Origin: Chloroflexota bacterium
GTDB taxonomy: Bacteria; Chloroflexota; Anaerolineae; Anaerolineales; Villigracilaceae
NCBI GenBank assembly: GCA_013152325.1
Contig: JAADGN010000024.1
Coordinates: 1 to 58,277 of the forward strand
Length of the DNA: 58,277 nucleotides
Direction: 5' to 3'
Under the pieces are notes generated by a model that ran no database searches, was not told where the DNA came from, and was given only the letters and a program-made list of their open reading frames with translations. A program made the translations under genes and the position numbers. Numbering within the stretch: position 1 is the stretch's first letter; every line of letters begins with the position of its first letter. This document shows positions 22,331 through 27,775 of this stretch, in pieces.

Positions 22331-22753
22331 ATGACAAACCTAAAACCTCTCAACTGGAAGCCGGAACCCGGTATTGGCTACACTGTCGTTCGTCGCGAAG
22401 ATGGCGGCATGCACTACACTTTCACCGATCTTTCGGATGCCACCATTAAACACTGGCAGGAATTTGCCCGCGAACATCTTTTCGATGCTGATCGTCTGAC
22501 GCGCAACCTGTATGACTTGCGTCAGGTTGAAGAAGTGCCCGAAAAGGCCATCAAGGCCGCGGTGGAACTCAACAGCGACCCGTCGGCGCGCAAGATCCGG
22601 CTGGCGGTTGTGGTGGCGACGGATGCTGTTGCGGATGCTATCCGCAAGGTCGCGGCGCTGGCGCTGACCGCGGCATCGGCCGCGATCCATATCTATACCG
22701 ACATAGACGAGGCCGAAGCCTGGCTCAGCCGCCCGCTGGATCAAATCGCTTAG
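22331..22753 (+). CDS. small STAS/SpoIIAA-like protein, unknown function
   Basis: 140 residues, soluble. The pattern of HYTFTDLSDATIKHWQEF, LYDLRQVEEVPEKAI and IHIYTDIDEAEAWLSRP resembles the SpoIIAA-like (STAS-related) proteins that carry a short alpha/beta domain and end in an AEAWL helix. AGGAGG precedes the ATG. folP begins 2 nt after the stop, so the two are almost surely co-translated from one message. A regulatory or lipid-binding role is possible, but nothing here proves one. Confidence 0.6.
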   Translation: MTNLKPLNWKPEPGIGYTVVRREDGGMHYTFTDLSDATIKHWQEFAREHLFDADRLTRNLYDLRQVEEVPEKAIKAAVELNSDPSARKIRLAVVVATDAVADAIRKVAALALTAASAAIHIYTDIDEAEAWLSRPLDQIA

Positions 22754-23646: not shown

Positions 23647-24960
23647 ATGCTCCAGAATCACGCTCAGAGTCTGTTGCGGAACGCGATCATCTCAGCAAAG
23701 AATGGGGAATATAAACTGGCCGAGCAATATCTTGACCGCGTTTTTGCCGCGACCGACGACCATGACACCCTGGCGGAAGCATGGTATCGCTTGAGCGAAA
23801 TCACGTCTGATCCGGCAGAGAAACGCAAGATGGTGGAGAACGCGCTTTCCCACAACATGACCCATGCGCAGGCGCGCCGCTCCCTGGCAATCCTGGACGG
23901 AAAGATCAAATCTGAAGAAGTGGTGAACCCTGATGCGCTCCCTGCTGCTTCGCAGGAGGATGTCAACGCGGATGCACAGCGTTTTACCTGCCCCAAATGC
24001 GGCGGCCGGATGGTCTATTCGCCGGATGGACGTTCGTTGGTCTGCGAGTTTTGCGCCCGTAACGAAAATTTATCGTCGACGGGCGGCCAAGGGGCCGATG
24101 AGCAGGATTTCTTTGCCGCGATGGCGACCGTGCGCGGTCACAGCAAACCGGTCGCCAGACAGGTTTTTCATTGTCAGGGGTGTGGCGCTGAATTTATCCT
24201 GCCGCCGGGCGTGATCTCCGCAACGTGCGCGTACTGTGCTTCGCCGCACGTGGTCAGCCTGGCGGAGACGCGTGCCTTGTTGGACCCGGACGCGATCATC
24301 CCGCACGCCTTCGATCAACGCCGCGCCATTCGTATTCTGGTGGACTGGGTTCAGCAGCACGAGTTCACGCCGCAGGGAAAGGTCATCCCGCCGCGCGGGT
24401 TTTACCTGCCTGTCTGGACCTTTGACGTGGGCGGCAGCATTGACTATCGCGGCGAAAGCGAACCGGATGAAATTGATGTTGTTTTGTTGCAGCAGCCTTC
24501 CCCCGGGCGGGAGCAGGGCTCCTACCCCGTTTTGGTTGATGACTTGTCCATCCCGGCCAGCAGCAAACTGAAACGCCGCGTCGAACCGCTGATCGCGACC
24601 TATGATCTGCGCCAGGCCAAACCCTACGACCCGCGCTATTTGTCTGATTGGCCTGCTGAGGTCTATGACGTCCCTCTTGCCGACGCCTCGCTGGCGGCGC
24701 GCAGTCAGGCCTACGCGCGCTACAAGAAAATTTTGCCCCAAAAATTTGCACACCTCGAGAATTTCAAAATGTCTTCCGCCAATTTGGCAATTGACTCCTA
24801 CAAATTGCTGCTGCTGCCGTTATGGATGACAGTTGTTCCCTATGAGGACAAAGAATACGTGGTATTGGTCAATGGACAGACTGGCGCGGTGCAGGGCGAA
24901 GTACCCCCCGGCGCCCGAAAGGGCATCAAGGGCTGGCTGAACAACTTGCTCGACGCCTGA
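23647..24960 (+). CDS. double zinc-ribbon protein with TPR-like N-terminus, unknown function
   Basis: 437 residues. The first ~85 are helical and TPR-like (KNGEYKLAEQYLDRVFA). Two four-Cys zinc ribbons follow: C115, C118, C133, C136 and C176, C179, C194, C197. The remaining ~240 residues contain PRGFYLPVWTFDVGG and KLLLLPLWMTVVPYEDKEYVVLVNGQTGAV, a beta-rich domain typical of uncharacterised zinc-ribbon proteins with a C-terminal membrane-proximal domain, but no true TM helix is obvious. The gene lies 6 nt after folP and 4 nt before the PBP-like gene, so its closest functional partner may be the latter. Confidence 0.72.
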   Translation: MLQNHAQSLLRNAIISAKNGEYKLAEQYLDRVFAATDDHDTLAEAWYRLSEITSDPAEKRKMVENALSHNMTHAQARRSLAILDGKIKSEEVVNPDALPAASQEDVNADAQRFTCPKCGGRMVYSPDGRSLVCEFCARNENLSSTGGQGADEQDFFAAMATVRGHSKPVARQVFHCQGCGAEFILPPGVISATCAYCASPHVVSLAETRALLDPDAIIPHAFDQRRAIRILVDWVQQHEFTPQGKVIPPRGFYLPVWTFDVGGSIDYRGESEPDEIDVVLLQQPSPGREQGSYPVLVDDLSIPASSKLKRRVEPLIATYDLRQAKPYDPRYLSDWPAEVYDVPLADASLAARSQAYARYKKILPQKFAHLENFKMSSANLAIDSYKLLLLPLWMTVVPYEDKEYVVLVNGQTGAVQGEVPPGARKGIKGWLNNLLDA

Positions 24961-24964
24961 CGTT

Positions 24965-27775
24965 ATGTCTACAGTCTTGTCTATCCTCCGCAATCGTCGT
25001 AATCGCCGTGCTCAGGTCTGGCGTCGTGTCGAGAGACGCGGCCGCAGCGCTGGCATTGGCTGTGGGTTAATCGTCAGCGTGCTGCTTGCGTTGGGGATCC
25101 TGGGCATGGCATCGACATATGCCAGCCTGACGCGTGACCTGCCGCCGGTCGAGACCCTGCCTGTCCTGCTCAATCCGCCGGACGGACTGCTGCTCCAGCC
25201 CACCCGCCTGTACGACCGCAGCGGCGAGCATCTCCTGCAGGTTTTCGCGCCCACCGACGCGCCGCGGCGTTACATCCCCCTCAGCGACCAAAATCCGCAG
25301 CATCTGCCCGAAGCCCTGGCGCAGGCCACCCTCGCGATGGCCGACCCCGGGTTTTGGGAGCATCCCGGCTATACCCTCGCCGGTCTTGACAACCCGGACT
25401 ATCATCCGACCCTGGCGCAACGATTGGCGGCAGACCTGTTGTTGTGGAATGAGCCGCCTTCCACGCGGCGCGCGCTGCGCGAGCGCATCCTGGCTGCGCA
25501 GATCACCGCCCGTTATGGCCGCCAACAAGTGCTCGAATGGTATCTGAACAGCGCCAATTACGGCCATTATGCGTACGGCGCGGAGGCTGCGGCCCAACTG
25601 TATTTTGGCAAATCTGCCATGGAACTGGACGTGGCCGAATCCGCCGACTTGGCCGCCGTCAGCCAGGCCCCGGCGCTCAACCCCATCGATGCGCCCATCG
25701 CAGCCTACCAGCGCCGTCAGGAGACGCTGCATGTCATGGAGACGCTGGGGATGCTCACCCCGAAAGTCGCCGCGTCTGCGCTTCAGACTACCCCGCGCCT
25801 GCTTCCGTTTACCGAGCCGGAGAACCCGGCCCCGGCATTTACCCACCTCGTCCTCGCCCAGTTGAGCGAGCTCTACGACCGCGCCCGCCTGGAGCGCGGC
25901 GGGCTGACGATCATCACCACGCTGGATTTTGACCTGCAAGCGCAGGCTGCCTGCGCTGTACAGACTCAGGTGGACCGTCTCAGCGGGGAGACAGCCGAAA
26001 CGCCCGCGGATTGTGACGCGGCGCGGCTGCTGCCCACGCTGCCGCCCGGCCCGTCCCTGACGGGGGTCGCTGCCAGCGCGCTGCTGGTTGACCCGGCCAA
26101 TGGTCAGGTGTTGGCCGCGGTCGGCGAGACGACCCAAGCGGGCGAAACGGCCATTTTGACGGCGCACCGCGCCGGGTCCGGTTTGACTCCGTTCATCTAC
26201 TTGACGGGATTTACGCGCGGGCTGAGTCCCGCCTCCTTGTTGTGGGACATTCCCAATCGGGTCGACGTCCAAAACCTTGACGGCGCGTATCACGGCCCGC
26301 TGCGCCTGCGGCTGGCGCTGGCGAACGATTATCTCGTACCTGCCGCGCTCGTGCTGGATCAGATGGGCAGCGAGAACGTACGGCGCACGGCGCGCTCGTT
26401 TGGTCTGGAATTCGACCCGTCTGCGGACCTGCTGCAGGACGATCTGCCGTTGACCCCGCTGGATGCAGCGCGGGCGTATGGCGTTTTCGCTGCGCGGGGT
26501 GTGATGGCCGGGCAGCGTCTGGTGGGCGAGTCGCTGCAGCCGGTCACGGTGCTGAGGGTGGTGGGCGCGGACCATGCCATCTGGCTGGACTGGGGCAGGC
26601 CGCAAACGCAGGCGGTGGTCACGCCGCAGTTGGCCTACCTGATGAACAACGTCTTGAGCGACGCGACCGCCCGCTGGCCGAGTTTGGGCTACCCCAACCC
26701 GCTCGAAATTGGGCGACCTGCCGGGACGAAACTTGGCCAAACCGCGGACGGGCTGGATGCCTGGACGGTGGGCTATACCCCGCAGCGGGTGGCCGTTGTC
26801 TGGATGGGCGCGGAAGCGCGCCTTGAACCAAAAGCGGCGGCGGGATTGTGGCACGCGCTGCTCCAGTATGCCAGCCGCGAGCTGCCGCCAGAAGGCTGGG
26901 ACGCGCCCGCCGGAGTCACGACGATGGCTGTCTGCGATCCTTCCGGGCTGCTGCCGACTGTCGATTGCCCGAATGTGGTCAGCGAAGTCTTCCTGAACGG
27001 CAACGAGCCGACCCAGGTCGACAACCTGTACCGCTCCTTCCAGGTCAACCGTGAGACTGGCTACCTGGCGACGGTCTTCACGCCGCCCGAACTGGTGGAG
27101 GAACGACGATACCTGCTCGTGCCGCCGGATGCCAGGGAATGGGCTGAATCGGCGGGGTTGTCCATGCCGCCGGATGCGTATGACGCCATCCAGCAGCCGC
27201 CGCGCTTGCCGGACGCGCATATCAGCGCCCCGGCCATGTTTGCCGATCTGCGCGGCGAGGTGCAGATCAATGGCACGGCCAGCGGGGAAGATTTTGATTA
27301 TTATCGCATTCAGGTCGGGCGGGGGCTGAATCCTGAAATGTGGGTACAGGTGGGCGGGGATGTCTACTCGCCGGTCGTCGAAGGGACGTTGGCCGAATGG
27401 GATACCAGCGACCTGAGCGGATTATATGCGGTGCAATTGTTGGTCGTGCGGACGGATCAGCGTGTGGAGACGGCTACGCTCCAGGTCACGGTGGACAACG
27501 AACCGCCGCAAATAAATGTGCTTTCCCCCCCGGATGGCGCGCAGCTGACGTACGACAAGAATGAGCCGATCACGTTCCAGGTGCAAGTCGATGACAATTT
27601 GTCGTTAGCAAAAGTGGAATTTTATATAGACCGCCACCTGCTCGGTGCAGCAACAGAATCCCCCTTTACGTGGACCTGGTTCCCTGCGTTGGGGAAACGC
27701 ACGCTGCGTGTGGTCGTGTATGACAGGGCGGGAAACCAGGCTGAGGATGTCGTGACGTTTACGGTACAACGTTAA
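24965..27775 (+). CDS. class A penicillin-binding-protein-like protein with degenerate active sites
   Basis: 936 residues: one TM helix (about 34-57), a GT51-like domain (~100-280), a transpeptidase-like domain (~360-650) and a C-terminal Ig-like domain (~850-935). Folds are recognisable from VLEWYLNSANYGHYAYGAEAAA, YFGK and DAWTVGYTP. Active-site residues are not kept. The GT51 catalytic Glu is A126 in AMADPGFWEHPG. The SxxK tetrad is S405-G-L-T408 (Lys lost), SxN reads D-Y-L in ALANDYLVPA, and KTG reads KLG. It is therefore probably a pseudoenzyme or scaffold, not a working peptidoglycan synthase. The frame is intact over 2.8 kb, so it is under selection. Start codon is ATG, 4 nt after the zinc-ribbon gene. 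Confidence 0.8.
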   Translation: MSTVLSILRNRRNRRAQVWRRVERRGRSAGIGCGLIVSVLLALGILGMASTYASLTRDLPPVETLPVLLNPPDGLLLQPTRLYDRSGEHLLQVFAPTDAPRRYIPLSDQNPQHLPEALAQATLAMADPGFWEHPGYTLAGLDNPDYHPTLAQRLAADLLLWNEPPSTRRALRERILAAQITARYGRQQVLEWYLNSANYGHYAYGAEAAAQLYFGKSAMELDVAESADLAAVSQAPALNPIDAPIAAYQRRQETLHVMETLGMLTPKVAASALQTTPRLLPFTEPENPAPAFTHLVLAQLSELYDRARLERGGLTIITTLDFDLQAQAACAVQTQVDRLSGETAETPADCDAARLLPTLPPGPSLTGVAASALLVDPANGQVLAAVGETTQAGETAILTAHRAGSGLTPFIYLTGFTRGLSPASLLWDIPNRVDVQNLDGAYHGPLRLRLALANDYLVPAALVLDQMGSENVRRTARSFGLEFDPSADLLQDDLPLTPLDAARAYGVFAARGVMAGQRLVGESLQPVTVLRVVGADHAIWLDWGRPQTQAVVTPQLAYLMNNVLSDATARWPSLGYPNPLEIGRPAGTKLGQTADGLDAWTVGYTPQRVAVVWMGAEARLEPKAAAGLWHALLQYASRELPPEGWDAPAGVTTMAVCDPSGLLPTVDCPNVVSEVFLNGNEPTQVDNLYRSFQVNRETGYLATVFTPPELVEERRYLLVPPDAREWAESAGLSMPPDAYDAIQQPPRLPDAHISAPAMFADLRGEVQINGTASGEDFDYYRIQVGRGLNPEMWVQVGGDVYSPVVEGTLAEWDTSDLSGLYAVQLLVVRTDQRVETATLQVTVDNEPPQINVLSPPDGAQLTYDKNEPITFQVQVDDNLSLAKVEFYIDRHLLGAATESPFTWTWFPALGKRTLRVVVYDRAGNQAEDVVTFTVQR

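What the first reader, a model, noticed from the sequence alone, without database searches (positions are those of the whole stretch)
24965..27775. Class A PBP-like protein with catalytic residues lost in both domains
The fold landmarks of GT51 and of the transpeptidase are kept, but the key residues are not. A126 sits at the GT51 catalytic Glu position (anchor F-W-E-H-x-G). T408 replaces the Lys of SxxK. D-Y-L replaces SxN, and KTG reads KLG. The 936-codon frame is intact and an Ig-like tail is added, so the protein is selected as something other than a synthase: a scaffold, decoy or sensor of wall precursors. It is tightly linked to a double zinc-ribbon gene, 4 nt upstream.
Basis: partly seen in the sequence, partly recalled or inferred. 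Interest (0 to 1): 0.75.

Follow-up and report, generated by a model that had tools for sequence, protein, structure and literature searches.

The report
Dead cell-wall synthase kept by selection
A two-domain cell-wall-building enzyme has lost the key residues of both active sites, yet related bacteria have kept the protein and now protect its far end more than its catalytic parts, so it probably works as a structural or regulatory part rather than as an enzyme.

Summary
Aligned with canonical class A PBPs, the 936-codon frame has A126 for the GT51 Glu, SGLT for SxxK, DYL for SxN and KLG for KTG. The loss is clade-wide: in 101 relatives from ten families of the order the SxxK Lys is kept in 0 of 100, the SxN Ser in 3 of 100 and the GT Glu in 2 of 97; in 28 relatives from five other families and from other orders each is kept in 28 of 28. 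The degenerate rows form one clade, with partial states in one family. dN/dS is 0.065-0.309 in 22 pairs. Relative to residues 641-845, GT and TP evolve about 2.4 times faster than in intact relatives, in 127 of 127 bootstraps: constraint moved to the C-terminal end. Two reader points fail: the Ig-like tail is ancestral, and the zinc-ribbon neighbour is missing from 20 of 56 own-family genomes that keep the protein. Best reading: a pseudoenzyme that scaffolds or regulates wall synthesis. Partner unknown; no structure or bench test was possible.

The parts
24965..27775 (+). pseudo class A PBP, 936 aa (residue p starts at 24965+3(p-1))
25046..25114 (+). single N-terminal transmembrane stretch (about residues 28-50)
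   Evidence: hydrophobic run seen by eye in the translation; no TM predictor was run
25190..25744 (+). GT51-like domain (residues 76-260)
   Evidence: Pfam Transgly 91 bits, residues 112-258
25340..25342 (+). A126 at the GT51 catalytic Glu position
25400..25423 (+). eroded motif II (YHPTLAQR for GGSTITQQ), after a gap of about 11 residues against canonical PBPs
25472..25483 (+). RKxxE region: Lys lost (A170), E173 kept
26060..26884 (+). transpeptidase-like domain (residues 366-640)
   Evidence: Pfam Transpeptidase 18.4 bits, below its 22.1 cut-off; alignment to solved PBPs
26177..26188 (+). SGLT in place of SxxK (S405 kept, T408 for Lys)
26327..26335 (+). DYL (455-457) in place of SxN; the Asp is found in 97% of the core degenerate group
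26729..26737 (+). KLG (589-591) in place of KTG
26885..27499 (+). C-terminal module (641-845), the part whose constraint is retained
27500..27772 (+). terminal Ig-like domain (846-936; Big_7, BiPBP_C), ancestral and often lost in the own family
23647..24960 (+). neighbour with two zinc ribbons (CxxC pairs, by eye); not an obligate partner

Best explanation
An orthologue of an ordinary bifunctional class A PBP in which both catalytic centres were lost, probably once, in the ancestor of about ten families of this order, and which has been kept since as a non-catalytic wall protein. Shown: loss of the residues, purifying selection, and a shift of constraint to the C-terminal region. Supported by trees: a single clade. 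Likelihood: pseudoenzyme about 0.9; scaffold or regulator through the C-terminal module about 0.55.
For: Residue tally, 101 degenerate against 28 intact relatives; direct alignment to solved PBPs; one clade of 59 rows, SH-aLRT 100; a tree from residues 641-845 alone does not reject one clade (p-AU 0.983); dN/dS 0.065-0.309, median about 0.15, in 22 degenerate pairs that share some members, against 0.039-0.225 in 7 intact pairs; GT and TP accelerated about 2.4-fold relative to 641-845 in 127 of 127 bootstraps; the own genome holds a separate class A PBP with all motifs; in 6 of 10 f15 genomes the orthologue is the only GT51 match, and these six keep the GT Glu and SxxK. Precedents for inactive wall enzymes with regulatory roles: degenerate LytM amidase activators (PMC8360153, passages) and the catalysis-independent role of C. 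difficile PBP3 (PMC12539705, abstract and section list).
Against: No partner is identified, and the neighbourhood is not conserved across families. The gene is dispensable in places: not found in G017 (97% complete), and in several f13 genomes only weaker matches were listed, which I did not examine. Two degenerate members keep the GT Glu (L059, L132). GT identity in the own family is still high (0.598 against 0.606 for 641-750), so that domain is not free to drift. Redundancy alone does not explain the erosion: sampled genomes of f3, f4 and f10, and most of f11, have 2 or 3 GT51 matches, and the orthologues sequenced from these families are intact. In four incomplete genomes (G100, G179, G180, G190; 72-81% complete) the only GT51 match is a weak one (best E 5.9e-31 to 3.5e-12), so the intact partner was not seen there. 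No structure could be predicted.
Confidence: 0.6

Rival explanations
1. Precursor sensor or decoy: the former active-site clefts still bind lipid II or stem peptides without turning them over.
For: In the core group the SxN Ser is replaced by a nearly fixed Asp (97%); K589 is kept in 79 of 100 and G591 in 85 of 101 degenerate rows, and the second GT Glu E173 in 71 of 99: a re-specified rather than random cleft.
Against: GT and TP are the parts that accelerate. The Lys of KxG is kept in 0 of 8 f12 and 0 of 5 f2 members. Motif II and its flank are changed or missing.
Confidence: 0.15
2. Altered but active enzyme: S405 (or Thr) with another base, or the retained E173, supports a weak or different reaction.
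For: Ser or Thr at 405 in 93 of 100; E173 in 71 of 99; two members keep the first GT Glu.
Against: SxxK Lys 0 of 100, RKxxE Lys 0 of 99, SxN Ser 3 of 100. I recognised no replacement catalytic set among the conserved positions listed, but without a structure this is only by eye.
Confidence: 0.08
3. Relic in slow decay with no function.
For: Strong erosion in f2, f12 and genus g34; not found in G017.
Against: Long open frames across the sampled families; dN/dS 0.065-0.309; identity of 641-845 stays between 0.49 and 0.69 within degenerate families while GT and TP fall to 0.38-0.60.
Confidence: 0.05
4. Functional unit with the adjacent zinc-ribbon/TPR protein.
For: 4-nt spacing in the window; the same gene upstream in 19 of 58 own-family genomes; 36 of 56 pseudo-PBP genomes have it against 0 of 5 without the pseudo-PBP (three of these five are at most 83% complete).
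Against: 20 of 56 genomes with the pseudo-PBP lack it, and in others it lies elsewhere in the genome; beside loci of other families no match exceeded about 30 bits (many of those loci hold only about 1.5 kb upstream).
Confidence: 0.05

Closest known systems
Class A penicillin-binding proteins (PBP1A family, TIGR02074)
   Same: Domain order TM-GT51-linker-TP-C-terminal region; best NCBIfam match (246.3 bits); homologous to solved PBP1a chains
   Different: Below TIGR02074's curated cut-off of 508.75; GT Glu, SxxK Lys, SxN and KTG Thr lost
PBP1C / PbpC (TIGR02073, BiPBP_C tail PF06832)
   Same: Terminal BiPBP_C/Big_7 Ig-like domain
   Different: 173.7 bits against a cut-off of 494.2; catalytic residues lost
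Degenerate LytM factors (EnvC, NlpD, ActS)
   Same: Catalytically dead wall-enzyme fold that is kept; there it activates an active enzyme (PMC8360153, passages)
   Different: A hydrolase-type domain, not a synthase (recalled); an activating role is not shown here
C. difficile PBP3, role independent of catalysis
   Same: A PBP whose catalytic activity is dispensable for a division role (PMC12539705, abstract)
   Different: A class B PBP whose activity is dispensable for that role, not a class A protein that has lost its residues

Membership tests
Class A PBP (by descent) | GT51 and transpeptidase domains in one membrane-anchored chain | tested here: met
   Pfam Transgly 91 bits, over the cut-off; Transpeptidase 18.4 bits, under its cut-off of 22.1, but alignment to solved PBPs spans the domain; TM by eye only
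Class A PBP (by descent) | Groups with intact class A PBP orthologues in a tree | tested here: met
   the exact sister (f3, f11) is weakly supported
Class A PBP (as an enzyme) | GT51 catalytic Glu (ED..F..H.G motif) | tested here: not met
   A126
Class A PBP (as an enzyme) | SxxK, SxN and KTG motifs of the transpeptidase | tested here: not met
   SGLT, DYL, KLG
Class A PBP (as an enzyme) | Glycosyltransferase activity and beta-lactam acylation | not testable with these tools
   needs purified protein
PBP1C equivalog (TIGR02073) | Score over the curated cut-off | tested here: not met
   173.7 against 494.2 bits
Pseudoenzyme | Catalytic residues lost, gene maintained by purifying selection | tested here: met
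Pseudoenzyme | No activity by assay, and a demonstrated non-catalytic role | not testable with these tools
   needs experiment

The most novel reading that the evidence does not exclude
A whole clade of bacteria runs a two-component class A PBP system: an intact synthase plus an orthologue in which both catalytic centres died once, with the surviving function carried by a C-terminal wall-side module. It would be a dedicated non-catalytic subunit (activator, brake or scaffold) of wall synthesis, with partial intermediates of the conversion still present in one family.
Probability: 0.45. Interest if true: 0.75.

Novelty: new variant of a known kind. Interest (0 to 1): 0.6.

Why it matters
Class A PBPs are treated as enzymes and antibiotic targets. 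Here both activities appear to have been lost across a clade while the protein was kept, with intact, partly eroded and fully eroded orthologues available for comparison. That makes the question of what a class A PBP does besides catalysis directly testable and points to residues 641-845 as the place to look. It also warns that annotation by a GT51 match (91 bits, well over the Pfam cut-off) would label this protein an active transglycosylase.

Tried and rejected
Structure prediction: tool switched off, so no fold search and no overlay on PBP1b; the register rests on sequence alignment to solved chains and to relatives. The zinc-ribbon partner idea was tested by neighbourhood and co-occurrence and mostly rejected. 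The 'added' Ig tail was rejected. Pseudogene decay is disfavoured by dN/dS. Long-branch artefact: the main tree used LG+G4 and a quick search, with many rows of odd composition and its deepest splits weak; a tree from residues 641-845 with a mixture model put the degenerate rows in two parts in its free search, but the tree with them held together scored higher and was not rejected. Degenerate and intact groups were named by family after looking at the motifs, so the tallies describe those groups; the tree is the independent part. The intact rows from other orders are 17 of the best-scoring loci of a capped list, not a sample of the class. One search (genome contigs) gave eight relatives, none titled as that phylum. 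Literature: 'pseudoenzyme' with 'penicillin-binding protein' gave 0 papers; the lists (20 of 92 shown; 6; 14) showed nothing that, by title and start of abstract, describes a class A PBP naturally dead in both domains; on Anaerolineae or Chloroflexi gave nothing closer. Most subscription journals are not held.

Full report
What is in the sequence. The + strand holds an ATG-started frame at 24965-27775, 936 aa. Pfam finds a GT51 domain (91 bits, cut-off 27), a transpeptidase match below its cut-off (18.4 against 22.1) and a terminal Ig-like domain (Big_7, BiPBP_C). Against solved structures the best matches are class A PBPs. In those alignments A126 faces the GT51 catalytic Glu, T408 the Lys of SxxK, D455 and L457 the Ser and Asn of SxN, and L590 the Thr of KTG. 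A MAFFT alignment with 14 canonical class A PBPs of the same family gives the same register. Further losses are motif II (YHPTLAQR for GGSTITQQ) with about 11 residues missing just before it, and the Lys of RKxxE. The second GT Glu (E173) and the nucleophile Ser (S405) are kept. That Glu233 is the GT catalytic centre of E. coli PBP1b, and that SxxK, SxN and KTGT are the TP motifs, was seen in passages of PMC4810414; the numbering of the other GT motifs is recalled.

Is it local? No. In the own family 56 of 61 genomes searched carry a match above 540 bits, well apart from the intact PBPs at 270 bits or less. In the order and class searches 151 and 249 genomes were examined; loci were returned for the 30 best matches of each, partly the same, and 40 further stretches were fetched from the order. 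In 101 degenerate sequences from ten families (f1, f2, f5-f9, f12-f14) the SxxK Lys is kept in 0 of 100, the RKxxE Lys in 0 of 99, the SxN Ser in 3 of 100 (all f5), the SxN Asn in 1 of 100 (L155, f5) and the GT Glu in 2 of 97 (L059, L132). In 28 sequences (11 from families f3, f4, f10, f11 and f15 of the order, 17 from other orders of the class) each of these is kept in 28 of 28; 14 of 14 canonical PBPs of the own family keep all. The groups were named after the motifs were seen.

One loss and its remains. In a tree of 105 rows (18 of the 58 own-family orthologues) all 59 degenerate rows fall on one side of a branch with SH-aLRT 100; intact f3 and f11 lie next to them, with weak support (LG+G4, quick search, several long or odd-composition rows). 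A tree from residues 641-845 alone split the degenerate rows in two in its free search, but the tree with them held together scored higher and was not rejected (p-AU 0.983). Family f5 branches first and holds partial states: L155 has lost the GT Glu and SxxK Lys but keeps SxN and KTG. Families f2 and f12 and genus g34 of f9 are much more eroded.

Kept by selection. Nei-Gojobori dN/dS for 22 degenerate pairs is 0.065-0.309 (median about 0.15), like 7 intact pairs (0.039-0.225) and 2 canonical pairs (0.189, 0.103). Some pairs share a member, several are near synonymous saturation, and frames were taken from stop to stop, so a few codons before the start are included. Long open frames persist in the sampled families.

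Where the constraint went. In intact relatives of the order mean identity is 0.71 for GT, 0.69 for TP and 0.55 for 641-750. In the degenerate own family it is 0.60, 0.51 and 0.61, in f12 0.38, 0.42 and 0.54, in f5 0.43, 0.42 and 0.59. On the fixed tree the degenerate-to-intact length ratio is 7.3 for GT, 7.4 for TP and 3.1 for 641-845 (59 against 27 rows, so only the comparison between parts means anything). GT and TP exceeded the C-terminal part at least 1.97-fold and 1.92-fold in 127 of 127 column bootstraps. The C-terminal region reads much alike in intact and dead orthologues (CDPSGLLPT...CP...EVFL.G.EPT...LYR...INRETG.LAT.FTPPELVEER) and is related to the same region of a solved Pbp1a (7u4h, E 4.7e-07). 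So the catalytic domains were released and the C-terminal end was not.

Context. The own genome has one other GT51 match, a class A PBP with all motifs on contig C128. In six of ten f15 genomes (75-93% complete) the orthologue is the only GT51 match; the GT Glu and SxxK are present in 6 of 6, and SxN and KTG were checked in two of them, G087 and G099. This fits erosion being possible only where another class A PBP does the work. It is not sufficient, for sampled genomes of f3, f4 and f10 and most of f11 have 2 or 3 GT51 matches, and the orthologues sequenced from these families are intact. In four incomplete genomes of degenerate families only one weak GT51 match was found.

In the window the gene follows homoserine dehydrogenase, a thiolase, folK, a 140-aa gene without Pfam match, folP and the zinc-ribbon gene. 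That zinc-ribbon gene is upstream in 19 of 58 own-family genomes, in 15 within 200 nt, and beside loci of other families no match exceeds about 30 bits. At genome level 36 of 61 own-family genomes have it; 20 of the 56 with the pseudo-PBP do not. Ten loci of f7, f8 and f14 have a recN-like gene upstream instead (named by eye). The neighbour is thus not an obligate partner. The terminal Ig domain is aligned in 27 of 28 intact relatives and in about 22 of 58 own-family members (from the pair counts), so it was not added for a new role.

How it probably works. Shown: both catalytic centres lost, gene maintained, constraint moved. Inferred: a membrane-anchored, inert GT-TP body carrying a conserved C-terminal module that binds a wall component or a partner and so scaffolds or regulates wall synthesis. 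Precedents for dead wall enzymes with regulatory roles exist (degenerate LytM factors, PMC8360153, passages; catalysis-independent role of PBP3 in C. difficile, PMC12539705, abstract). The main rival is a precursor sensor using the re-specified cleft (D455 in 97% of the core group).

Limits. No structure, no expression data, no partner, no organism names. Absence from print is judged only.

Noticed in passing
L004, L005, L007 (Verrucomicrobiota): Class A PBP-like proteins with the GT51 Glu, SxN and KTG kept but TAFL in place of SxxK (both Ser and Lys lost): an apparently independent, transpeptidase-only loss.
   Followed up: no
L168 (G153, family f9 genus g34): Further eroded relative: GT Glu region and SxxK not recognisable by eye, while the C-terminal CVPSGQLP...ATVFTP region is kept. 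Not in the tree or tallies.
   Followed up: partly
G017 (own family, 97% complete): No degenerate orthologue found, only an intact-type class A PBP: apparent gene loss.
   Followed up: partly
L059 (G019) and L132 (G091): Two members inside the degenerate clade read ED at the GT51 Glu position although other GT and TP residues are lost; reversion or retention is undecided.
   Followed up: no
window 22331-22753: 140-aa gene between folK and folP with no Pfam match at E<=0.001; by eye, relatives lie upstream in 10 own-family loci.
   Followed up: no
several own-family matches (for example G030, G028, G048): Matches that end near residue 846, where the last Ig domain begins in the query, contain one stop codon; its position was not looked up. 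Possibly a trace of how the tail was lost.
   Followed up: no
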